From Auricularia sp. M13 (lineage: Eukaryota > Basidiomycota > Agaricomycetes > Auriculariales > Auriculariaceae): 64,000 nt of DNA. A program made the position numbers and the translations under genes. The stretch's first letter is position 1, and every line of letters starts with the position of its first letter. The notes under the pieces were generated by a model. The model did no database searches and was not told the origin of the DNA. It worked only from the letters and a program-made list of their open reading frames with translations. Below are positions 4,328 to 31,915 of this stretch, in pieces. Location of the stretch: contig CM073195.1 of the NCBI GenBank assembly GCA_037042915.1, forward strand, positions 4,216,001 through 4,280,000, read 5' to 3'.

Positions 4328-6901
4328 CACTGGGCCCGATGACAAGGATATCTCAAGAATTGTTTGAGGATATCGCGCTGTCATTCGGACACTACGCACC
4401 AGGATTGCTCAAGAATCACATGCTGTAATCCTGGTGTGATCCTCAAGCCAATAGTTTGGATAACAGTCCAGGATAGCACAAGGAATTCTTGCTGAAAACC
4501 AGGTCAAAACCTGGTGAGAATTTGTAGATCATATTCAAGATAGTGTTCCAGGATTTCTCGAAATTTCAGTCTTGCTTTTCCTTGTGCGATCCTTGAGCAC
4601 CAGGTACAACTTTATTCGAGGAATGTTCGCTGAAAACCTTGTGTAAACCTTGTGAGATACTGTGGTAAATACTTACTGAAATAGACAAGGTTTTCTCAAG
4701 GTTTTCTCAGTGGGATCCTCGTGGGTTCCTCAAGACTAAATGACAAGATTCGCAAGAAATTCGCTCAAGTCACACATGAAGGGGTCCTTGTGTGATTCTT
4801 GAGGGGTTGTATTGGTTAGTGGTTGAGGATGGCATGGGGAGATACTGAAGAAAACCTCGTGGTCATATTTCAGTTTAGTCGCGAGAATGACATGTGGTTC
4901 GCAGGATGTGAATCTGGAGAAATCCTGAAATGAGAATAAAGAGAGTTGTTTGTTTGCAATTGGAATCCAAGAACAGAAAGAGTGAGACATCAGGGATGGT
5001 GATTGAGGAATCCAGGTCATGCGCAAAATGCCTGCCCCAAAATGGAAAAAGAAAGATTTCAGAAAGATTGCAAGCACCCAAAGGGGGAAAATGGTTGATG
5101 GCACAGCAAGTTGGAACCCAAATAGGGATTGTCTCAGCCAGGGGTACGACTGGGGCCTGAATGGTGTTTTTAAGGGAGAGGAGAGACACAGTGGTGGTTG
5201 ACACATTGCGGGTGGCGGTTTCTGTGACAAGCAGTGTCAAACATGTCGAACAGTGTGGCCAACCACCGCGGACGATCGGAGCGTGAGAAACCGCGATTCA
5301 GGGTTCAATTGCACCCCAGGAAGATTCTTCTGTGTTCCGGAATGCGATTTGATATTGGGAAAGAGGATAGATTCTGCGGAAGAGTGCTCAACACTGCGCG
5401 TCACAGCAACCACCACCCATGCTGTGTCGCCGACCACCGCGGAAGTTGGGACTGTGAGAAACCCACCGTGGGTGGTGGTTGCTGTGACGTGCAGTGTCGA
5501 GCACTCTCCTGCACAATCTGTCCTGTTTCCCAATATCAAATCGCATTGCGGAACGCGAAAGAATGTTCCTGGGGTGCGATTGGACCATGAATAGTGGTTT
5601 CTCGCAGTCCAAACGTCCGCAGTGGTCGACGACACAGTGTGGGTGGTGGTTGCTGTGACGCGCAGTGTCGAGCACTCTCCTGCACAATCTGTCCTCGTTC
5701 CCAATATCAAATCGCATTGCGGAACGCGAAGGAATGTTCCTGGGGTGCGATTGGACCCTGAATCGCGGTTTCTCACAGTCCAAACCTCCGCAGTGGTCGA
5801 CGACACAGCATGGGTGGTGGTTGCTGTGACGCGCAGTGTTGAGCACTCTTCCGCAGAATCTATCCTCTTTCCCAATATCAAATCGCATTCCGGAACACAG
5901 AAGAATCTTCCTGGGGTGCAATTGAACCCTGAATCGCGGTTTCTCACGCTCCGATCGTCCGCGGTGGTTGGCCACACTGTTCGACATGTTTGACACTGCT
6001 TGTCACAGAAACCGCCACCCGCAATGTGTCAACCACCACTGTGTCTCTCCTCTCCCTTAAAAACACCATTCAGGCCCCAGTCGTACCCCTGGCTGAGACA
6101 ATCCCTATTTGGGTTCCAACTTGCTGTGCCATCAACCATTTTCCCCCTTTGGGTGCTTGCAATCTTTCTGAAATCTTTCTTTTTCCATTTTGGGGCAGGC
6201 ATTTTGCGCATGACCTGGATTCCTCAATCACCATCCCTGATGTCTCACTCTTTCTGTTCTTGGATTCCAATTGCAAACAAACAACTCTCTTTATTCTCAT
6301 TTCAGGATTTCTCCAGATTCACATCCTGCGAACCACATGTCATTCTCGCGACTAAACTGAAATATGACCACGAGGTTTTCTTCAGTATCTCCCCATGCCA
6401 TCCTCAACCACTAACCAATACAACCCCTCAAGAATCACACAAGGACCCCTTCATGTGTGACTGAGCGAATTTCTTGCGAATCTTGTCATTTAGTCTTGAG
6501 GAACCCACGAGGATCCCACTGAGAAAACCTTGAGAAAACCTTGTCTATTTCAGTAAGTATTTACCACAGTATCTCACAAGGTTTACACAAGGTTTTCAGC
6601 GAACATTCCTCGAATAAAGTTGTACCTGGTGCTCAAGGATCGCACAAGGAAAAGCAAGACTGAAATTTCGAGAAATCCTGGAACACTATCTTGAATATGA
6701 TCTACAAATTCTCACCAGGTTTTGACCTGGTTTTCAGCAAGAATTCCTTGTGCTATCCTGGACTGTTATCCAAACTATTGGCTTGAGGATCACACCAGGA
6801 TTACAGCATGTGATTCTTGAGCAATCCTGGTGCGTAGTGTCCGAATGACAGCGCGATATCCTCAAACAATTCTTGAGATATCCTTGTCATCGGGCCCAGT
6901 G
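4328..6901. mobile_element. Palindromic CACTA-like (EnSpm) non-autonomous DNA transposon
   Basis: The element starts CACTGGGCCCGATGAC and ends with the exact reverse complement. It is bounded by GAT at 4325-4327 and GAT at 6902-6904. A CACTG terminus with a 3-bp target duplication is the hallmark of the CACTA/EnSpm superfamily. Nearly the whole element is one palindrome: left arm 4328-5462 (1,135 bp) and right arm 5768-6901 (1,134 bp), differing by a few bases such as one single-base indel near 4770/6463. The terminal few hundred bases are full of short motifs related to AATCCTGG, CTCAAG and AAGGTTTT, like the subterminal repeats of CACTA elements. The centre holds 171-bp repeats. The long matching open frames on both arms are mirror images and encode no recognisable transposase, so movement would need an enzyme supplied elsewhere. 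Removing element plus one GAT restores a hydrolase exon. Confidence 0.85.
5468..5980. repeat. 171-bp tandem repeats at the palindrome centre
   Basis: The string TGGGTGGTGGTTGCTGTGAC begins near 5469, 5640 and 5811, which is 171 bp apart each time. Each unit continues through CAGTGT, GAGCACTCT, CCCAATATCAAATCGCATT and a CCTGGGGTGC block. The third unit lies in the right arm, and its mirror copy is at about 5260-5430 in the left arm. So the element has a loop of about 305 bp (5463-5767) made of two more direct copies of sequence also present in the arms. Confidence 0.8.
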
Positions 6902-9726: not shown

Positions 9727-9843
9727 CTAGTTACTCTTTGGCACCGGCGGCAACTTGACCCCGAGCTGCAGCGGCGAGCGCAGGGGCGCGGCGGCGGCGA
9801 GGGACGCGGCGGCGAGAGCGAGGGCGATGCGGACCAGCTGCAT
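9727..9843 (-). CDS. Short secreted peptide gene, paralogue of the PVEH-repeat genes
   Basis: The 38-residue product is almost all signal peptide (MQLVRIALALAAASLAAAAP) followed by LRSPLQLGVKLPPVPKSN. The internal ATG at 9843 was preferred to the longer frame because a TATA-like box (CATAAAAG, about 9933-9940) lies 90 bp upstream and the signal peptide starts directly at this Met. The mature start APLRSP matches the APLRTPVEH start of the two larger genes downstream on the same strand, so it looks like a repeat-less member of that family. No intron is needed. Function is unknown. Confidence 0.55.
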   Translation of the reverse strand: MQLVRIALALAAASLAAAAPLRSPLQLGVKLPPVPKSN

Positions 9844-10648
9844 GACTCGGAGGGCGTGTGTAACGACGGGAGTGGTGTGAGTGCGGGGGGACGGAATGAG
9901 TTGGTTGTTGGGCAGAGGCAGAGCAGGGGCGGCTTTTATGCCTGCGGGCCTTTGTTGACGTTTGCAGCCCGTGTTTGAATGAGCAATCTTCAATCTGCAA
10001 TCTGCACCCTTGACGGTCGTTTGAATCTGCGTCGGTGTCGGTGGCGTCGGGCGAGCCTCGGCGATCCTCCAGACAAGTGAGGCAGCGAGCGACGGTGGCT
10101 CAGCGCGCTCGTAGCACGTGAGAGCAAGCTATCGCACATTCAAATCCCAAGATGTCTCACGTGGAGGAGATCGAGCAGCAGAGATTCGTCTTCCTGAGGA
10201 TCGTGCCCACGTGAACTGAGTCAATCCTGTGAACTGAGCTAATCCTGACAGTGAGACCGAGTCTCCAGTGCAGTACTGAATGTCCGCGTCCACGGTTGGC
10301 GTCGCCGTTGCAGTGTGCACGGCATCGCGGGTTTCGGGCTCCTGACCAGCCTAATAGAAGCGATAAACAACGTTCCAACGTGATTGACACACACAGGTTA
10401 CAACAAACACCTCCTCCGGCCAAACAATCCTGATATACGTAGGTATAATAATGTCCAACGCCGGGCCGTCCCACCAGGAGACGCACAACGACGACGGTAC
10501 ACTACCAGCCCCCCAAAATGCGTGCGTATGCGTATATATAGATATCCTGCACGTGAGTGAGATGTCAGCGCTTGAATGGATGGATAGATAGGACGCACAG
10601 ATAGACAGATGATATAAGCAGCCAGTAGGACTGACGTGATATAGGTGC

Positions 10649-11248
10649 TCATGCGTCCGTCACGTCGATCGGATCGTGCTCGACGGGCGTGCGGAGGCGC
10701 GGGAGGATCTCGATAGGCGAGTGCTCGACAGGCGTGCGCAGAGGCTCGCGCGTGACGACGTCGATCGGAGAGTGCTCAACGGGCGTGCGGAGAGGCTCGC
10801 GAGGAACGACATCGATGGGAGAGTGCTCAACCGGCGTGCGCAGGGGCTCGCGGGGGAGCACGTCAATGGGCGTGTGCTCGACAGGCGTCCGGAGGCGCGG
10901 GACGACGTCGACCGGGCCATGCTCGACCGGGGTGCGGAGAGGCTCGCGAGGGAGAACATCGATCGGAGAGTGCTCGACCGGAGTGCGGAGAGGCTCGCGA
11001 GGCACAACATCAACAGGCGAGTGTTCAACCGGGGTGCGGAGAGGCGCGCGCGGAACGACGTCGACCGGGCTGTGCTCCACGGGCGTGCGCAGCGGCTCGC
11101 GGGGTAGCACGTCAGCAGGCCCGTGCTCAACAGGGGTGCGGAGACGCGGGAGTACATCGACGGGCCCGTGCTCGACAGGCGTGCGGAGCGGCGCCGCGGC
11201 GACTGCGAGCGCCAGCGACAGGAAGGCGGCGAGAAGGCGGAACTGCAT
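10649..11248 (-). CDS. Secreted repeat protein with eleven RTPVEH units
   Basis: An uninterrupted 199-residue frame. Residues 1-18 are a signal peptide (MQFRLLAAFLSLALAVAA), and the mature protein begins APLRTPVEH. It then consists entirely of eleven copies of a 15-17 residue unit with consensus EPLRTPVEHSPIDVVPR. Some units lack the EP pair. RTPVEH never varies, while position 9 (G, S, T, D) and the hydrophobic positions do. There are no cysteines and no lysine-arginine Kex2 sites; a lone Arg ends each unit. Extended acidic-hydrophobic repeats without cysteine suggest a non-globular wall or secreted protein, or a peptide precursor; neither role is proven. The ATG lies just before a canonical signal peptide. 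The gene is flanked by two relatives on the same strand. Confidence 0.8.
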   Translation of the reverse strand: MQFRLLAAFLSLALAVAAAPLRTPVEHGPVDVLPRLRTPVEHGPADVLPREPLRTPVEHSPVDVVPRAPLRTPVEHSPVDVVPREPLRTPVEHSPIDVLPREPLRTPVEHGPVDVVPRLRTPVEHTPIDVLPREPLRTPVEHSPIDVVPREPLRTPVEHSPIDVVTREPLRTPVEHSPIEILPRLRTPVEHDPIDVTDA

Positions 11249-12218
11249 GTTTGGTCTCGGTCGCGAGCGGGCTGAAAGGCGAGGATTAAACGGCGGGCGG
11301 TGAGTGTATAACGAGTGTGGGCTTTACGCGGCGGGGGACGGTCAGGCTATGCTGAGGTCGCGGGCTTGGACGAAGGGGAACAGACAGGTGGCAGGACGGG
11401 GCCAGAGCGATGCAGCGTGCGCTTTTGTAGATCGTTGCCTGCATGAGGACGGTTGGGCGTGGGTGCGCGTTGCTGACGGGATCATGGCAACCCACGCGCA
11501 ACGGTGGGATGATCCGATATTTATGCACGCACCGCCCAGATTGCCCTGTGCACCCGGATTCTCGCGCCTAACATTCGCGGCCAGGGATGTCGAAAACCGC
11601 GCCTCTGGCACGTCGGAAAGCGTCTGAGACAGCCTGCTGGCACGGTCGTACAACGAGCGGCGGTAGACCAGCGCGGGCGTCGCTATCTCACGGGACTGCG
11701 TCATGCGCATGCAGATGCTGATTTGCCAAGCCCTGTCCGGACACCGGGGTTACACAGCTCCCTGCGATAGCAATAGTGTTGCTATCTTGGGAACACCCTG
11801 ATGCGGGCGGGATGGCGAAGGAAAATACAGCGCGAGCGAGCGTTGCATTTAGACTTTCGCTAGCCCCACTTGCACGCGCTCGCGTACCTGGCAGCCATTC
11901 CCTCTTCGAACGAGGAAGCGTGTGGAAGCCAGGTGGAAGAAGCCCTGATACGGACTACGGATCATCACACCACGAAGTTGCCATGGGCGCCTGGAAGAAG
12001 CGCAAAGCACGACACTGTGGCCGGGGTCTGGACAGGAACCAGGACAGGGAGACGTGGATATGATGAGGTATACAGATTGGGTTTGGTGCGACACGGGTGA
12101 ATTACAGAAAGTCAAGACAAGGTATCGCGGGATCCAATCCCTGCGCCGACGATTGAGTTCAGCACCGCCAAAGCCGGAGAGGACAATGGCCCGTACCATC
12201 AGATGCGGGCGCACTCAG
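11249..12218. other. Intergenic between the two PVEH-repeat genes
   Basis: About 970 bp holding the presumed promoter of the 199-residue gene and the 3' region of the 84-residue gene. Open frames here lack signal peptides, domains or paired splice sites and are read as chance. Confidence 0.45.
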
Positions 12219-12473
12219 TCAATCGAGACGGTGCTCGACGGGCGTGATGAGGTGCTCTACGGGCGTGATGAGGTGCTCGACGGGCGTGATAAGGTGCTCG
12301 ACGGGCGTGATGAGGTCCTCGACGGGCGGGATGAGGTCCTCGACGGGCGCGATGAGGTCCTCGACGGGCGCGATGAGGTGCTCAACCGGCGTCCGCAGCG
12401 GCGCGGCATGCACAGTGGCGGCGACCAGCACCAGCGCGAGTTGAGCCAGAACAAAGCGGATCTGCATCTGCAT
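12219..12473 (-). CDS. Secreted repeat protein with heptad PVEH/PVED units
   Basis: About 84 residues. A signal peptide (QIRFVLAQLALVLVAATVHA) is followed by APLRTPVEH and then seven heptads of consensus LITPVEH or LIAPVED, ending RLD. The first mature residues are identical to those of the neighbouring 199-residue protein, but the repeat has contracted to seven residues. ATG codons at 12473 and 12467 both precede the signal peptide; the first is used here. A TATA-like ATATTTAAAA lies about 105 bp upstream (near 12580-12590). The nearly identical 21-bp DNA units suggest recent slippage expansion. No cysteines or dibasic sites are present. Function is unknown. Confidence 0.7.
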   Translation of the reverse strand: MQMQIRFVLAQLALVLVAATVHAAPLRTPVEHLIAPVEDLIAPVEDLIPPVEDLITPVEHLITPVEHLITPVEHLITPVEHRLD

Positions 12474-23775: not shown

Positions 23776-24485
23776 AAGATAGGTTTGTGCACGTTCATCT
23801 TCCCTTCCCACACGCTGGCCGATTACCCATCTTACACGTCTCCAGTCACCCTTCCTGCACGATCTTTATCCCTTCCCGCACGATCTTTATCCCTTCCTAC
23901 ACGTGCAGTATGCCTTCCTACACGCTCCAATAACCCTTCTAACACGTCCTTATAACCCTTCCTACACGCTGGTATTACCCTTCTTACACGTCCTTATAAC
24001 CCTTCCTGCACGTTCTAGTATCCCTTCCTGCACGCTCCCAGGGAGAACTCTAGTACACATCAAAGGAGTGCTCAGAAAATTCTGGAAACTGGATGACAAA
24101 TACCCATAATCCAAAAGAAAAATATTGGGATACTTACCGTAACCCTGGATGCTGTGCTTGATTTGATATTGAGCATTCTTTCCTTTTTGGACGCACATGT
24201 CAGACGTCAAACTGTACAGCACCAGAACCAGACCCCCATAAATCTTGGTGAGCTTTTCATAAATCATAAGAATGCTAACAAAAAATATTTACAAAGTTTC
24301 GGAGTCCAAATGCTATTTCCCAATTTGGTATGATGTCGCTTATCCGCTCACAGTGCGGCACACACAGTGCCACGGTGGATCGGTGATAAATTGAGTTTGG
24401 GGTCTTGAAAATCTCGATCATCATTACTAAACATTATGATGCAGAAAGGTACAATTATTTCATTGAAAACGAGCTTCAAATCACA
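23776..24485. repeat. Left terminal inverted repeat of the MULE
   Basis: Outer half (about 23800-24050): a dozen units of CCCTTCCTACACG or CCCTTCCTGCACG spaced by about 20 bp. Inner half (about 24060-24485): unique sequence matching the reverse complement of 31146-31570 almost exactly. The outer tip reads CAAGATAGG. Confidence 0.75.
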
Positions 24486-24791
24486 ATTTTATTGCAGTTT
24501 TCCTATAATCTGTGCAAGCGAACACGATGTGAGGCTTCACAGTACATTCACATCATTTTCTGAGCCACAGATATTCTGATGAGTACAAGAACAGAGAGTA
24601 TTACAGGTCATCAGCTTTCAACGATACGAAACACCTTCACGGCGTGCTCGTTTGGGCTGCTGTGCGGTGTGTGGAGTTGGTGGTGTGTGCGGCATCTGCG
24701 CCTGAGATTGATGGATTTGTGGAGGTGTTGAGGGTGGTGGAGACCTATGTTTAGATTTTTTAGTGCCTAATTCTGTTCTTAATCCAACAAC

Positions 24792-27511
24792 TCACTCTAC
24801 TTGCATAACATTTTTGTTTTTGATGTGGAATGCGACCAATTGCTCTGCAATGGTGTGCCGGTATTCAACTGGATTGATCTCAAATTGCTTCCAAGACGAA
24901 GGCCGTGTCTGGGTAGACAGCTTTTCAAGGAAAAAGCAGGTGAATGGGCCACAACTATGGCCATCATTCTGCTGCTGCACTGCCTGTTGGGAAGTATTTA
25001 GCAAATAGGCAAACAGGTTAACCCTGTATGTTCAGCTTACTGGTAGGTGCACAATCCATTGGGAACGCTTGAAGGGGAAATCAGCAGCACGCTGTGGAAA
25101 CTCCATGCGTTTATATATCGCATATTCTTCGAGGTAGTCCAGGAGGTGCTATAAGAATTTCAGCTTCATATATGAGGGGCAGCAGGTAAGCATGACGCAC
25201 CAGCATAACTGTGTCGCGAGAGTGTGTTTTTTTGACATCACCTCTATCCTTGGAATGGGTAGAGAGAGAGTCCATATAAGAAATGGTGTGCTTCTGAAAA
25301 TCGATGACTGCCAACGCCCAGTGATTATTGTTGATGTTGATTGGAATGTTCAGGTGAGACAAGGCAAACAGAGTGTCGCACTGATCAAATCAATTTAAAA
25401 TTCTGGTGCTCCTAAAGAATACACTCACCTTTTTGAACCACTTGTGCAGTTGAGTAGTCTGAGCAGAAACAAAACTTGACGTCTCTGTCTCTCCTGTGCT
25501 GGTAAAGCGGCAAAAGTCTCTACACCATCGTCTCTGATCTTGATGTATTCCATCAGCTTTGCAAAAAGAAGGAAGACACATTGTGCCAGCTTCCTTTGTC
25601 AAAACTGCCACCGTGTAGGACTGCCCAAGCATTGATGATCTCATCATTGAACCAGGCATCATCACGGCGAAGAATGGAGACTTCTCGCCCAGTGATGAAC
25701 TGGCGCCCAATTGTAAGAAGTCGAGTTGACTGGTCTCCTGTCCAGGCAAGGAGCTTATATCAAGTTAGTGCCTGATAAGCGTTGGATGCGAGTACAAACC
25801 TCATGAACAGTGTGAATGTCAGTCTGTGTAGCAGTGACTGGCACAACCGGATTGGTGACGACGTCCTTCTGAAGGAAGGTTAATTGGTGTAGATAGTATA
25901 GAGACGTATTTGTACCATTTCCACATGGATGATCGCTTTTGCAGCGGATTCATCAATTTCCTAGAAGACATGAGTACATATGATAGACCGATTTTGCAAC
26001 GTACCATATCCAGAGCCTCGTAGTCTCCCATCACAAAAAAGTACCTGCTCTGTGGGCGCAAGAGGTCGGGGAAAGCCTCTGGAAGCTGGAGTCCAAGTGG
26101 TGCAATCCAGGTAGTCATTTCGGATTTTGAGATTGGCGAAGCAGGGAAAGCAGTAAGAAGTTGCTGGAAAGCTGAGATGATTGTTTGAGGTGCGATGTCA
26201 CCGAAGACATTGGCTGTCGATCCATAAGGACGCTTGTTGAAGAGAATAAAGAACGCCAGCCCAGCCATTAGAAGTGCACTTTCACAATCTTCCTGTCCAG
26301 ATGCAGGGAGTGCGAATTGTTTGTACATCGGCTACGACCTTGATGAGAATGTGTGTTGCATGAAGACGTGCTAAAACAAACCTGGGCTGGATCATCGACT
26401 GGCATCCAGTGGCGCATAATGGTGAGCTGTGTTGCACGATCTCCATCTTGCACGTTGTGCTGATGTTGAACACCATAGACGAAGGGAACCACAGGCGACT
26501 TGGGCCTCCATTCGCAGAGGTACCAGTGCTGCGAAGCCACACTGAAATGGAAGAAAATAATTCGCTTGATGGCCTGCTTGTGAAAGGCGAGATGAAGAGT
26601 TTCCCACAACCCTACGAGGTTCTACATTATCATCAGACACTGATGCCCGCATCAAATCAATGAATTTATACCTGTGGTGCGCCTGGATCCTGTCGAAGCT
26701 TGGCAAACTCGGCAGCCTGCTTTTCAGCATTGTACTCGCCAGGCACAAATAGTATCCCAAGTTCCAGCTCTTCGCTGAGGCAGCTGAGGAAGGCCGAGAG
26801 AATGCGAACAATCTGGAAGCTGTCCATTGGAGTTTCGAATGAGGAGTTGTCCGTCTGTTACCAAGAAATGTTAAGAATACATATCCAACTGCACTGAGTT
26901 CACACACCATGTCCAGCTGCTTTCCTTTTCCTTTGTCAACAGGTTTTCCCTGACCCTCCTTCGTCATAAATATATTAGACGAATATATCAATTGGAGACA
27001 CTATGGAATAAAGCATACCTGTGATTGCTCTGCAATCGTCTTGGCAGGAAGCAGGCTGTTTTGTGGGCCTGCTGGACGCCCAGGACGCTCTGAAAATCGA
27101 AGATGAGAAGAGCTCTGCTTCCCAGATTCACTTCGCCAGGACTGCATTGGCTTGATTTTCCCTGGATGGCCAGGAGTAGATCCTCCTCAAATAGCATTAG
27201 TTTTTGTGCATGTGATCGTTATTAGAAATGTGCATACCAAATTGAGCTCGAGGATGAAGCTCAGGCTGTTGAGCGTCAAAGTGTAGGGGAGCATTAGCCA
27301 TAGATGTATCTGAATCGGAGTCCTGCTCTTCCATCTTGTGAAGCAGGCGACGTGCGAGCGAATCAAAAGTGGTGTTCTTGGCTGCGTCTTCAACCACAAG
27401 GTCAAGAGTCTCTGCAATCTTGCTATCTCGCAAAGGACGAGGGGGCGCCTTGCTTCCGGGAGGTGGCTTTGGAGCAGACGCTTTGAAGCCCTGCTTTGTG
27501 GCCCCTTGCAT
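24792..27511 (-). CDS. Ulp1-type cysteine protease module of the MULE
   Basis: A disordered, proline-rich start (APKPPPGSKAPPRPLRDSK) is followed by helical segments and, at the C-terminal end, a complete Ulp1 (C48) fold. The substrate-entry motif is DDAWFNDEIINAWAVL. The His box is IPININNNHWALAVIDF, the Asp box ISYMDSL, and the Gln/Cys box QQQNDGHSCGPF. Ulp1 enzymes cleave SUMO-like proteins; in transposons their role is not settled. An upstream segment (SVASQHWYLCEWRP and, later, LPASGQEDCESALLMAG) looks like a second, divergent copy of the His and Cys boxes. The frame's first Met is 22 bp from the transposase stop, and an in-frame GT-AG intron bridges the two, so one fused product is more likely than two genes. 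Confidence 0.72.
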
Positions 27512-27533
27512 CTCGCGCAGACAGACTCATTCG

Positions 27534-30437
27534 CTACCATTTTATTAGATATAGCTGTGCATCATGACTATCTGGAGTATACGTACCAACCCAGCTCTTG
27601 GCATCGCCATTCCCCAACAGCAGGCGGATTGCCCAGATATGGCAGCATGATCTGCCCGTCTGGTCAAATGCCTTGCAGCTACAACGTAGAGTGCTGCTTT
27701 GGGACTTGGTCACCATAAACCGCTCCTCAGATCTGGAATAAAATATTAGCCTGATGACCATTGATTCACTCAAACCCATTTACTTAAACTCTGAGACCCT
27801 CCAAGCGTCACCATCAAGTTTCCGTAGCATATGGGGCTCGCTCCAAATATAGTGACCTTCTTGGATCTCGCCTAGCAATTCGGTGTTGCGAACAGGTCCC
27901 TTCGGCTCCCACTGCTGGAAGAAAGGGAAGAACTCGTTGGCCAGGATGATTACAAGACGATCAAGCCTAGAATGATGTTCAGAAATCCTGTCCATAGTTA
28001 AAATTTAGACCCCTACCTTTTGTTTGCACGACAGTGCAGGAACAACTGATCAAACGTCTTGAAAGAACGCTCAATCCAATTGTTTGTATTGAGCATTCCA
28101 TCGCGGTTGTGCCCTGCAGGCAAGCCAATGTCTGTCCACATATCTGCAGGATTTTAGTGACATTGTGTTATGGAAAATAATTCATACCTCGCCAGAACGA
28201 AACAAACCAATTCTTCTCAAAGTATCTCCAGGTTTTCAGGCGTAGTTGCGCATCTAGAACAATGGACTCGAGCTGCTTTTTGAAGGTTCCAATAGCTGCC
28301 TGCCATTTATCCATTGAATCGCAACGCTGCAAGGAGCGAAAAGCAACACAAAGAAGTCGCTTTTGTGGCACAGACAGCGAAGGTCGCTCGCCTGGGGATC
28401 CTTCGCCGTCAAACCTTAGAATGGCCTGGATAACGTGGAACTGGCACAGGCGGATTATCATATCTGGCCAAACTAGACTTCAGTTAGTGTGATGACCTTC
28501 TGCAAGATTTGAATAATCGTGCCTGCACGAATGGCATTTGCTTCAGCTCGGCTTTTGTCAATCATGACCCAGGCAGGTTTCCACCCATGCGCCACAATGT
28601 ACAGCGCAGATGCTTGCAGCTTCTTGATGTCTGCAGCATCCTTGTGCTGAACTTCGACATTTCCTAATAAAACTGTTAGTATCGAGCTCAGCAAAGGAGC
28701 ATCCCTCTGACCAGATGAGATTTTCAAAGCATAATCCTCAATGCGAGCCTTCGTTTCCCTCAGGAATTCCTCCAAGGTTTCTGCTTGAACATCCTCAGAG
28801 AGCATTGCTGCGCCTTAATTTTTTATAAGCATTAGAGCGCACCTGATCAAATAGAACTCACCAGGCAGACAATGCGTCTCCTTATTGACAGTAACCAGGA
28901 AAGTAAGAGGCGCTCGATTTTCATTCTTGTTTCTCCAGGACGAATCAAGAGCGCAGCCAAGCTCTGGAGCATTGATGATCAGGTTCTCCATGGCGAAAGC
29001 ATCAGAAATGGCGACAGAGAATTTGGTGGGAGGCGTCGCATCAGGATCGTGATTCTTGAACCTGTAATATAGATTAAAACCCACACATGTGGGCTATTCA
29101 CTACTCACATGTAGATGGACTGAGGCTTGTTCTCTGCCAGAGTGCCAATAGCACGTATGGGATCATGGTCGGCACGCCCATGCCTACGCCATCCTTGAAC
29201 AATATCAGCAACTTGTCTTGCAGTATGCTGGCGGCGTGGCAAAATCTTGTAAGTCTGGTAGGTTGTCATGAGGCCTAAGCCAACATTTAGCATCATTGAT
29301 CATACATGGTATTTTCCGGTACTTACGCTGCTTGATGATGCCTGCAGTAAGTCCCAAAGATGCACAGTCCATGATCTGCTGGCGAACATAGTGGGATTTT
29401 ACACTGTGCTTCTCAGCAGGATGATGGTGGTCCTCAAGCGCTTGGGTCCAAATTGAAGCCAACTCGAGATTTCCAGCCAGAATCTCCACCTATATGATCT
29501 ATGAGTAAAAATATTCTGCACATAGACATTTACAAACCTGGAGGCGTCCTTTGCACGGGCATAAAATGCGAGCACGCCGACGCCGCGTGGGGGTCCAGAT
29601 TCATCTACAGGTGTAGTGCCTGAGGGAGCATCCTCTGGAGCAGCTTCCTCGTCATGAAGCTCTGCATCTGCTTCCTCGGCAGTGTCTTCGGGCCAAGCGC
29701 AACTGCCTAGGCAATTGTAGGAAACACGAAAGACAGGTTCGTCTGGCTTCACAAATGCTGGACGCTCGTTCTTCCACGAAACCATGAAGTCACGTGCACG
29801 GATATCTTGTGGTCGATCAAGAGGATGACCGACAAAGTGCACATCAAGCTCCGGATGATGCGCATATTCTGGATTAACGTAGTCGTGTGGCTGGTAACAT
29901 GATAAATAATGATTAGAAAGAACGAAAACATGGATTACACACCAAAGCTTCAATCTGATGCCAGAGTCGAGCAAGAGGAAACTTTCCAACACAGGTCCAC
30001 GAAAGACCATCCTTTTCCTCATGGGAAATTTTGTGGAGCTTGCGACTGTTACGTGTGCGAGACGCAGAGTGCGATGAGCGTGTGCGGGAAACACTGCGCG
30101 ATGCAGGCTCAAGAGCTGCCTGGGTGGTGGGAAGGAGCGCCCTACGGCCAGAGCGGTGAAAATCCAACAGGCTGAGAGTAGCAGGTGTTTCGTCGGGAAT
30201 GGGAGTTGCAGGAGGCAAATCAGAGCCAAGAGAGCCACGATCGGTCGAAGGAGCACGAGATGGATTTACAGACGAAGCGGTAGAAGCATTGGCGGAGGTA
30301 GTAGCGAAGCACGCCCACGGGGAGCAGACGAAGGCAGTTGAGCACGTGGGCGAGGAGGTCGTCCCCTCGTCCACCGGTTTTGTCAGACATTCTTGTAAGG
30401 AAGCGTAGAAAAGAAACAACACAAAAGGATTCTGCAA
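27534..30437 (-). CDS. MULE transposase with SWIM zinc finger (N-terminal module)
   Basis: Multi-exon. A Ser/Arg-rich N-terminal region is followed by a domain with SYNCLGSC and an acidic linker. The catalytic core then shows ALDSSWRNKNENRAPLTFLV (first Asp), PAWVMIDKSRAEANAI (second Asp), MIIRLCQFHVIQAILRF, and TNNWIERSFKTFDQLF (candidate catalytic Glu). A SWIM zinc finger of CxCx(n)CxH type follows (RCSCKAFDQTGRSCCHIWAI). Order and motifs fit Mutator-superfamily transposases. The last exon ends in an in-frame stop at 27534 only if the GTACGT donor in SWV|GTACGT is not used. If it is used, the protein continues into the protease module. The start at 30437 is tentative; Met codons further in are possible. 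Confidence 0.72.
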
Positions 30438-31145
30438 AAATGATATTAGCGTGTTTGAATATAAATTGAATAATTGATTTGAAGACGAATTAAAAGAAAT
30501 AATTATAATTATTTTATTGCAATTAAAAGAAATAATTATAATTATTTTATTGCAATTAATTTAATATTAAATATCGGAATCAATAATGATATTCATCATG
30601 ATTATTAAGATGATTCCTGGGATCATCATCATAGATGATGATGATACCAAGTATCATCATTGATGATGATGATGAGTACTATTGTCGACGACAATGATCA
30701 TCACAATGATCGTCATCATGATAATCATGATACCAGGTATCATTCTGGTCATCATTCAACTGATCTACATATTTGAACGCTTTGGACGAACAAGCGACAC
30801 CACTGACTCGTCCTAGCGCCAAACTCGTGCTCTAGGCGGCAAAAGGCACACCAGAGAGTGCAGTAGACAATATATATCATGATTATTTCAATGATTCCTA
30901 GGAATCATCATAATAATCACAATGTATATAGGAATGATGACGAGAATGACCAGAAAATGATGAAGAATCAAACACAACTAGTGAAGGAAGAGAACAGAGA
31001 GAAAGGAACATAATTACCAGCACAGGCGGTGATGATGGTGGTACAGAGCCAAGATGCAAGGTTTCGGAGTCTGAAACTGTGGAACCTAAATAAACAGCAT
31101 TTTCGCGAATTTAATGCATTTTTTGCAAGTTTATTGAGTGAAACT
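30438..31145. other. AT-rich 5' region of the MULE
   Basis: Strongly AT-rich, with a 33-bp unit duplicated in tandem (30488-30520 and 30521-30553) and about 150 bp (30600-30760) of ATCATC/GATGAT tracts that can fold back on themselves. It lies just upstream of the transposase start and is probably the promoter region. Confidence 0.5.
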
Positions 31146-31915
31146 GTGATTTGAAGCTCGTTTTCAATGAAATAATTGTACCTTTCTGCATCATAATGTT
31201 TAGTAATGATGATCGAGATTTTCAAGACCCCAAACTCAATTTATCACCGATCCACCGTGGCACTGTGTGTGCCGCACTGTGAGCGGATAAGCGACATCAT
31301 ACCAAATTGGGAAATAGCATTTGGACTCCGAAACTTTGTAAATATTTTTTGTTAGCATTCTTATGATTTATGAAAAGCTCACCAAGATTTATGGGGGTCT
31401 GGTTCTGGTGCTGTACAGTTTGACGTCTGACATGTGCGTCCAAAAAGGAAAGAATGCTCAATATCAAATCAAGCACAGCATCCAGGGTTACGGTAAGTAT
31501 CCCAATATTTTTCTTTTGGATTATGGGTATTTGTCATCCAGTTTCCAGAATTTTCTGAGCACTCCTTTGATGTGTACTAGAGTTCTCCCTGGGAGCGTGC
31601 AGGAAGGGATACTAGAACGTGCAGGAAGGGTTATAAGGACGTGTAAGAAGGGTAATACCAGCGTGTAGGAAGGGTTATAAGGACGTGTTAGAAGGGTTAT
31701 TGGAGCGTGTCAGAAGGGTTATTGGACCGTGTGGGAAGGGTAATAATGGACGTGTGGGAAGGCATACTGCGCGTGCAGGAAGGCATAAAGATCGTGCAGG
31801 AAGGGTATGTAGAGACGTGTAAGAAGGGTAATTACAAAGATCGTGCAGGAAGGGAAAGTCAACGTGTGGGATGGGAAATTGAACGTGAGGAAACAGATTT
31901 TTGATATCTTGTAGC
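31146..31915. repeat. Right terminal inverted repeat of the MULE
   Basis: Mirror copy of the left repeat. Its outer minisatellite (about 31595-31900) has CGTGCAGGAAGGG or CGTGTAAGAAGGG units. It is about 60 bp longer than the left one, so the arrays have changed length independently while the inner part stayed matched. Confidence 0.75.

What the first reader, a model, noticed from the sequence alone, without database searches (positions are those of the whole stretch)
9727..12473. A cluster of secreted proteins built from RTPVEH/PVEH repeats
Three minus-strand genes in 2.7 kb each encode a signal peptide followed by APLR(S/T)P. One is a repeat-less 38-mer, one has eleven 15-17 residue units (consensus EPLRTPVEHSPIDVVPR), and one has heptads (LITPVEH). 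RTPVEH is invariant in all eleven long units while neighbouring positions drift, which suggests selection on the motif. There are no cysteines and no Kex2 sites, so these are neither typical hydrophobins nor known repeat pheromone or KEP precursors. The contrast of a 17-residue and a 7-residue period around the same core is striking.
Basis: partly seen in the sequence, partly recalled or inferred. Interest (0 to 1): 0.78.

Follow-up and report, generated by a model that had tools for sequence, protein, structure and literature searches.

The report
Fungal repeat precursor for secreted peptides
A fungal gene appears to encode a secreted chain of eleven near-identical 15-residue peptides, laid out like the yeast alpha-factor precursor but with an unusual kind of cutting site that standard searches for such genes would miss.

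Summary
Three minus-strand ORFs (199, 84, 38 aa) each have a hydrophobic leader followed by APLR(S/T)P. The 199-aa ORF has eleven units with invariant LRTPVEH. Its two five-unit blocks differ at 55% of synonymous but 9% of nonsynonymous sites, so the protein is under purifying selection, not recent slippage.

'No Kex2 sites' is half right. There are no dibasic sites, but all ten Arg-ended unit borders read (V/I)(L/V)(P/T)R, fitting the extended Kex2 rule. Seven of ten are followed by EP or AP, the dipeptide type STE13 removes. After trimming, all units would start at LRTPVEH, which explains the 15/17 alternation.

Best explanation (inferred): an alpha-factor-like multicopy peptide precursor using Pro-Arg instead of dibasic sites. 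Two kexin genes and one DPPIV/STE13-like gene were found in the genome. It works like a KEX2-processed repeat protein (KEP) but fails the published dibasic definition, so dibasic-site screens would pass it over. The heptad protein cannot be cut into units this way and stays unexplained. No transcripts, peptides or orthologues could be examined.

The parts
10649..11248 (-). 199-aa multicopy precursor ORF (P0001), open from ATG to TGA without need of an intron
   Evidence: dN 0.10 against dS 0.98 between five-unit blocks
11195..11248 (-). predicted signal peptide of P0001, residues 1-18, cut VAA|AP (inferred by the -3/-1 rule, recalled)
   Evidence: crude hydropathy test; sole helix of the AlphaFold model is residues 2-17
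11189..11194 (-). AP dipeptide at the expected mature N-terminus of P0001 (STE13-type XP)
   Evidence: STE13 rule
10652..11188 (-). eleven LRTPVEH units; ten end in (V/I)(L/V)(P/T)R, of which seven are followed by EP (6) or AP (1)
   Evidence: tandem repeats
12219..12473 (-). 84-aa heptad-repeat secreted-type ORF (P0002)
12405..12473 (-). predicted signal peptide of P0002, residues 1-23, cut VHA|AP (inferred site)
12231..12398 (-). LRTPVEH plus seven LI(A/P/T)PVE(D/H) heptads
9727..9843 (-). 38-aa secreted-type ORF (P0003): leader, AP, then LRSPLQLGVKLPPVPKSN; single copy
   Evidence: N-terminal similarity to P0001 above all 2000 shuffles

Best explanation
The 199-aa protein is a secreted polyprotein that releases about ten or eleven copies of a linear 15-residue peptide, consensus LRTPVEHSPIDV(V/L)PR. 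Steps: signal peptidase cuts before AP (inferred); a Golgi kexin cuts after the Pro-Arg (once Thr-Arg) that ends each unit (inferred from extended Kex2 specificity); a STE13/DPPIV-type dipeptidyl peptidase removes the leading EP or AP where present, so 17- and 15-residue units mature to the same peptide (inferred); Kex1 may trim the final Arg (inferred). The invariant N-terminal LRTPVEH would be the part recognised by a receptor or target, the drifting tail a spacer plus cutting site. The 38-aa ORF would be a single-copy relative giving LRSPLQLGVKLPPVPKSN after AP removal. The 84-aa heptad protein shares leader and first LRTPVEH but has no cutting sites between heptads and probably acts uncut. 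Shown: gene structure, selection on the protein, fit of the borders to the rule, presence of the protease genes. Not shown: expression, cleavage, function.
For: P4-P1 at the ten borders: VLPR 4, VVPR 4, VVTR 1, ILPR 1; 10 of 10 fit P4 in LIVAP and P2 in KRTPEI, against 0 of 11 internal Arg and 12.7% of 2353 Arg in reading frames of 250 aa or more from the window and loci L022-L038. A review's figure legend gives Kex2 P2 alternatives Arg, Thr, Pro, Glu, Ile and P4 Leu or other aliphatic (PMC8528282, passages). The K1 toxin site PR44-E45A is a moderate to weak but working Kex2 site (PMC7021474, passages); PMC10537240 (passages) lists Pro-Arg as a Kex2 site; PMC13211469 (passages) says monobasic sites are confirmed in K1 and K28. 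XP after 7 of 10 borders plus AP at the expected N-terminus; the 15/17 difference is exactly this dipeptide. Two kexin genes: S8 domain with Kexin as best PDB match, P-domain, a hydrophobic segment downstream of it. One DPPIV-type gene with a hydrophobic segment. dN/dS about 0.10 (Fisher p about 1e-13). AlphaFold finds no structure beyond the leader (pTM 0.12). For C. cinerea KEPs expressed in P. pastoris, XA/XP removal and products apparently cut after single Arg were seen (PMC9769878, passages).
Against: No dibasic site, although the fungal KEX2 site is described as generally KR or RR, less often KK (PMC6339444, passages), and Pro-Arg is a weak Kex2 site in yeast. Specificity of this fungus's kexins is untested. 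The 10 borders share ancestry, so they are not 10 independent matches. Three of ten borders lack the XP spacer; the last unit has no terminal Arg. The heptad protein cannot be processed this way. No orthologues, transcripts or peptides could be examined. AlphaFold without an alignment is weak evidence. The antisense frame that is open for 222 aa also has a low pN/pS (0.21 against 0.17 in the sense frame), though it has no leader and its third positions coincide with those of the sense frame.
Confidence: 0.6

Rival explanations
1. Uncut secreted disordered proline-rich proteins: both arrays act whole, as a wall or surface coat or as a multivalent ligand, the spaced xPV(E/D) motif being the binding element.
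For: The same PVEH core recurs at 7- and 15/17-residue spacing, and the heptad protein has no border sites. No fold for P0001 beyond the leader; P0002 modelled as one long helix at pLDDT 82 but pTM 0.31 from a single sequence.
Against: Does not explain why the border Arg have P2 Pro/Thr and P4 aliphatic in 10 of 10, nor why unit length varies only by the XP dipeptide.
Confidence: 0.25
2. Released peptides, but cut by another monobasic protease (yapsin-like aspartyl or a secreted trypsin-like enzyme) rather than by kexin.
For: Borders are monobasic; a cited title names yapsin 2 as monobasic-specific (reference list of PMC2515848). Vogt et al. still found KEP peptides in all kex knockouts in which they could be looked for (PMC9769878 section 9).
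Against: Internal Leu-Arg would also be open to a simple tryptic cut, yet it is invariant in 11 of 11 units; the authors of the knockouts read persistence as redundancy of three KEX2 proteases.
Confidence: 0.1
3. ORFs without function: GC-rich minisatellites that happen to be open, with a chance leader.
For: The heptad array is a 21-bp tandem repeat with 92% matches, typical of recent expansion; no homologue in the collections searched, which however hold no collection of fungal genomes by their description.
Against: Protein-level constraint in P0001; three leaders followed by APLR(S/T)P within 2.7 kb, while the other 6 of 9 genome-wide AAPLR-type sites show no such leader by eye.
Confidence: 0.05

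Closest known systems
KEX2-processed repeat proteins (KEPs) of fungi, including agaricomycete KEPs with STE13 signatures
   Same: Signal peptide, short secreted protein made mostly of near-identical units (15 aa, within the 9-24 aa class most abundant in Dikarya except basidiomycete yeast-like fungi), arginine-ended borders, XP dipeptides after the border
   Different: Borders are Pro-Arg/Thr-Arg, not KR/RR/KK/RK; published screens cut at dibasic sites (PMC6339444 section 24; PMC7329392 passages; PMC9769878 section 14, which also had a visual RADAR screen that might catch it)
Ascomycete alpha-factor precursors
   Same: Multicopy; kexin, STE13 (EA/DA/XP) and Kex1 logic
   Different: Unrelated peptide; no pro-region between leader and first unit. 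According to the same paper basidiomycete mating pheromones are a-type, so a mating role would not be implied if this is a basidiomycete
K1 killer toxin delta/alpha junction PR44-E45A
   Same: Pro-Arg followed by Glu-Ala as a natural Kex2 site; here Pro-Arg followed by Glu-Pro
   Different: Single site in a large toxin precursor, no repeats; the comparison concerns the cutting site only
Ustilago Rep1 repellent
   Same: Repeat precursor of secreted peptides
   Different: No STE13 signature in Rep1; its sequence was not compared here

Membership tests
KEP (published definition) | N-terminal signal peptide | tested here: met
   Hydropathy and -3/-1 type test only, SignalP not available; leader helix in the model
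KEP (published definition) | At least 3 tandem repeats of 8 or more residues (Umemura criterion) | tested here: met
   11 units in P0001; not met by P0002, whose units have 7 residues
KEP (published definition) | Dibasic KR/RR/KK/RK sites between repeats | tested here: not met
   No [KR][KR] pair in P0001, P0002 or P0003
KEP in the wider, functional sense | Repeats separated by sites that Kex2 can cut | tested here: inconclusive
   10 of 10 Arg-ended P0001 borders fit the extended motif; cutting not tested. P0002: no Arg between heptads
KEP in the wider, functional sense | Kexin encoded in the genome | tested here: met
   Two genes on C4
Alpha-factor-type precursor | STE13 signature (XA/XP after the border) | tested here: met
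   EP 6, AP 1, none 3 of 10 borders, plus AP at the expected N-terminus; most but not all borders
Alpha-factor-type precursor | Mating pheromone function | not testable with these tools
   -
Dikaritin-type RiPP precursor | Tyr in the core for cyclisation | tested here: not met
   No Tyr in any of the three proteins
Hydrophobin | Eight spaced cysteines (recalled) | tested here: not met
   No cysteine; no Pfam match for P0001 or P0003

The most novel reading that the evidence does not exclude
A hidden class of fungal peptide-hormone precursors uses weak Pro-Arg sites plus STE13 dipeptides, invisible to dibasic-site screens; here one locus holds three ligands with a shared N-terminal LR(T/S)P key, as a multicopy 15-mer, a heptad polymer and a single-copy 18-mer.
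Probability: 0.3. Interest if true: 0.72.

Novelty: new variant of a known kind. Interest (0 to 1): 0.52.

Why it matters
Published counts of fungal KEPs rest on dibasic sites. If Pro-Arg plus XP borders are used, secreted peptide precursors have been overlooked, and the search can be repeated at once with the extended motif. In basidiomycetes, where alpha-type precursors have no known role, a repeated peptide kept by purifying selection, with a predicted mature sequence, would be a concrete ligand to test.

Tried and rejected
Family relatives outside the cluster: none found. Own-genome protein searches gave the two loci matching each other (E 3e-4 and 0.004) plus weak matches (E 0.17 to 2.2). 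I looked for frames of 100 aa or more at four of these loci; three printed one. Those at C2 and at C10:1880023 lie in other 7-residue-period arrays without PVEH in the frames shown; the third showed nothing of use. The pattern for AAPLR followed by S, T, R, C or W and then P, with CTN and CGN codons, gave 9 places (reversed control 8): 3 are this cluster, 6 have no leader by eye. A wider pattern gave 22 (control 21); its 13 further places were not read. A degenerate junction pattern (Pro-Arg, then E/A/D-Pro, then Leu-Arg and one residue and Pro, with some other residues allowed by the degeneracy) gave 8 places, 6 of them in P0001, 2 elsewhere unread (control 5).

Plasmid tblastn matches (12 records, below 60% identity, best E 6e-6) lie in autotransporter, Bap-like, hypothetical or unannotated stretches; I take them as composition matches, without further test. 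Viral and prokaryote collections: 15 and 163 pattern stretches, none confirmed; PDB none at E 1. These are not collections of fungal genomes, so absence says little. Pfam: P0002 to MINT_RAM7 at 19 bits against a cut-off of 108, dismissed. Full-text search for RTPVEH, TPVEH, PVEHSP, APLRTP: 5 papers, unrelated by title and start of abstract. PMC8999023 (passages) had Pro-Arg only in a serpin context, of no use; PMC2515848 (passages) gave only a reference title.

No blastn match (E up to 1) between 601 bases upstream or 369-401 bases downstream of the three genes, so if they are duplicates they are old. TATA-like words at -112 (84-aa gene) and -96 (38-aa gene), none within 401 bases for the 199-aa gene. 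Kex1 could not be picked out among 52 S10 matches. A peroxidase family search (15 matches), meant to help place the fungus, was not carried further; organism and phylum are not established.

Full report
The window is part of contig C3 (4,216,001-4,280,000 of 4,322,239 bases) of a 52-Mb genome in 14 contigs. Of ten ORFs of the window scanned, four had Pfam domains (F-box, GH43, P450, Zn-cluster) and six none. The Zn-cluster domain fits a fungus. I did not establish the phylum.

Observation. The three ORFs are as described. In the 199-aa ORF the eleven cores, aligned from LRTPVEH, are invariant at positions 1-7 and 9; position 14 is Pro in 9 and Thr and Asp in one each; position 15 is Arg in 10 and Ala in the last unit. 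All 15 third codon positions vary among units, against 6 first and 5 second positions of 15 each. Over all pairs of units pS is 0.58 and pN 0.13; within LRTPVEH pS is 0.50 and pN zero. Units 1-5 and 6-10 form two blocks: over 83 codons (the last two out of register) 38.5 of 70.5 synonymous and 16.5 of 178.5 nonsynonymous sites differ, dS 0.98 and dN 0.10 (Fisher p about 1e-13 on rounded counts). In the five other frames pN/pS is 0.21 to 4.2, against 0.17 in the sense frame. The lowest is, by coordinates, the antisense frame that is open for 222 aa; its third positions coincide with those of the sense frame, so a low ratio is expected there, but coding on that strand is not formally excluded. 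The units are well diverged from each other and kept at protein level. The heptad array is different: a 21-bp unit at 92% matches, with two silent changes among four LITPVEH heptads, hence recent.

Are the three a family? P0001 and P0003 align without a gap over their first 28 residues, through APLR(T/S)P, and all three pairs score above each of 2000 shuffles; shuffles do not keep the hydrophobic leader, so this overstates the case. The stronger point is location: AAPLR(S/T/other)P coding occurs at 9 places in the genome, no more than expected from the reversed control (8), but three are here within 2.7 kb, each after a leader, while the six others have none by eye. A wider pattern adds 13 unread places. 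Of 79 ORFs with a crude leader in the last 196 kb, four have AP(L/I/V/M)R after it: these three and one other, a 42-aa ORF 79 kb before the window start. Relationship of the 38-aa ORF is likely, not proven.

What the borders say. Of 21 Arg in mature P0001, ten end units and eleven are in LR of the core. The ten border Arg have P4 Val or Ile and P2 Pro (nine) or Thr (one); none of the eleven internal ones fits. Background for this fit is 12.7% of 2353 Arg in stop-to-stop frames of 250 aa or more (66 frames before those with the repeats were dropped), some of which may not be genes. The rule used is from a review figure legend: P1 Arg; P2 Lys, else Arg, Thr, Pro, Glu, Ile; P4 Leu or another aliphatic (PMC8528282, passages). 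The one exception to Pro, unit 9 with Thr, is thus also an allowed residue. A natural precedent is the K1 killer toxin site PR44-E45A, called a moderate to weak Kex2 signal; Arg44 to Ala abolished toxicity, while a lysine before the Arg gave the wild-type phenotype (PMC7021474, passages). Against this, a KEP survey calls the fungal site generally KR or RR, less often KK (PMC6339444, passages).

After the ten borders come EP (six), AP (one) or directly LRTPVEH (three); the expected mature N-terminus after signal cleavage is AP-LRTPVEH. STE13 removes XA or XP dipeptides, X often Glu or Asp (PMC6339444 and PMC9769878, passages). So the 15/17 alternation equals presence or absence of one removable dipeptide, and the conserved part is the predicted new N-terminus. 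This is the main new point of this report and it is an inference from sequence.

Machinery. Two kexin genes lie 36 kb apart on C4, each with S8 domain, Kexin as best PDB match, P-domain and a hydrophobic segment after it. Both P-domain matches have a stop inside, which I take for intron reading; full gene models were not built. One DPPIV-type gene on C8 has DPPIV_N and S9 domains and a hydrophobic segment. Such counts are lower bounds, as the tool states. C. cinerea has three KEX2 homologues (PMC9769878 section 9). Whether the enzymes here cut Pro-Arg is unknown.

Comparison. KEPs are defined by signal peptide, repeats and Kex2 sites; three surveys used KR/RR then KK, KR/KK/RK/RR and the four dibasic pairs plus a visual screen. 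P0001 fails that site criterion, so I do not file it as a KEP by definition, but it works like one of the STE13 type. Le Marquer et al. do not exclude that KEX2 of some fungi cuts unusual sites (section 24), and Vogt et al. saw products apparently cut after single Arg in P. pastoris. Pro-Arg borders are therefore an extension of known logic, not a new principle. My searches (lists of 20 of 23, 14 of 14, 20 of 148, 15 of 62, 15 of 40 and 1 of 1) showed no described KEP with Pro-Arg borders by title or start of abstract; full texts beyond the passages and sections named were not read.

Limits. P0002 does not fit: it has no Arg between heptads. AlphaFold gave one long helix (pLDDT 82, pTM 0.31, single sequence) despite a proline in each heptad; I give it little weight. 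An observation without explanation: TPVE and SPID have the form of helix N-capping boxes (recalled), twice in most P0001 units and once per heptad in most heptads. Function is open: six KEP knockouts in C. cinerea had no visible phenotype (PMC9769878 section 9).

Noticed in passing
window 4328-6901: Near-perfect palindrome: arms 4328-5463 and 5767-6901 at 99-100%, with 171-bp tandem repeats (5467-5968) at its centre; looks like a foldback-type element or an assembly fold.
   Followed up: partly
window 23822-31832: Inverted 587-bp arms (23903-24489 / 31141-31727, 99%) with arrays of 22-bp units at both ends; resembles a DNA transposon of about 8 kb. Two of its ORFs had no Pfam match.
   Followed up: partly
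G000 C1: 912781(+)/4793588(-) and 938419(+)/4768254(-): Mirror-image pairs with nearly equal coordinate sums suggest a large inverted duplication or misassembly in contig C1.
   Followed up: no
window 10635-11303, + strand: The antisense strand of the 199-aa gene is open for 222 aa stop to stop with CSTGVRR repeats; no leader; pN/pS 0.21 against 0.17 in the sense frame.
   Followed up: partly
L015 (C2:2805542) and L016 (C10:1880023): Other 7-residue-period arrays elsewhere in the genome, no PVEH in the frames shown.
   Followed up: no
C3, about 79 kb before the window start (script coordinate -78977 to -78849, + strand): A 42-aa ORF with a crude leader followed by GAPLRTVTG, the only other AP(L/I/V/M)R after a leader in the 196 kb scanned.
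   Followed up: no
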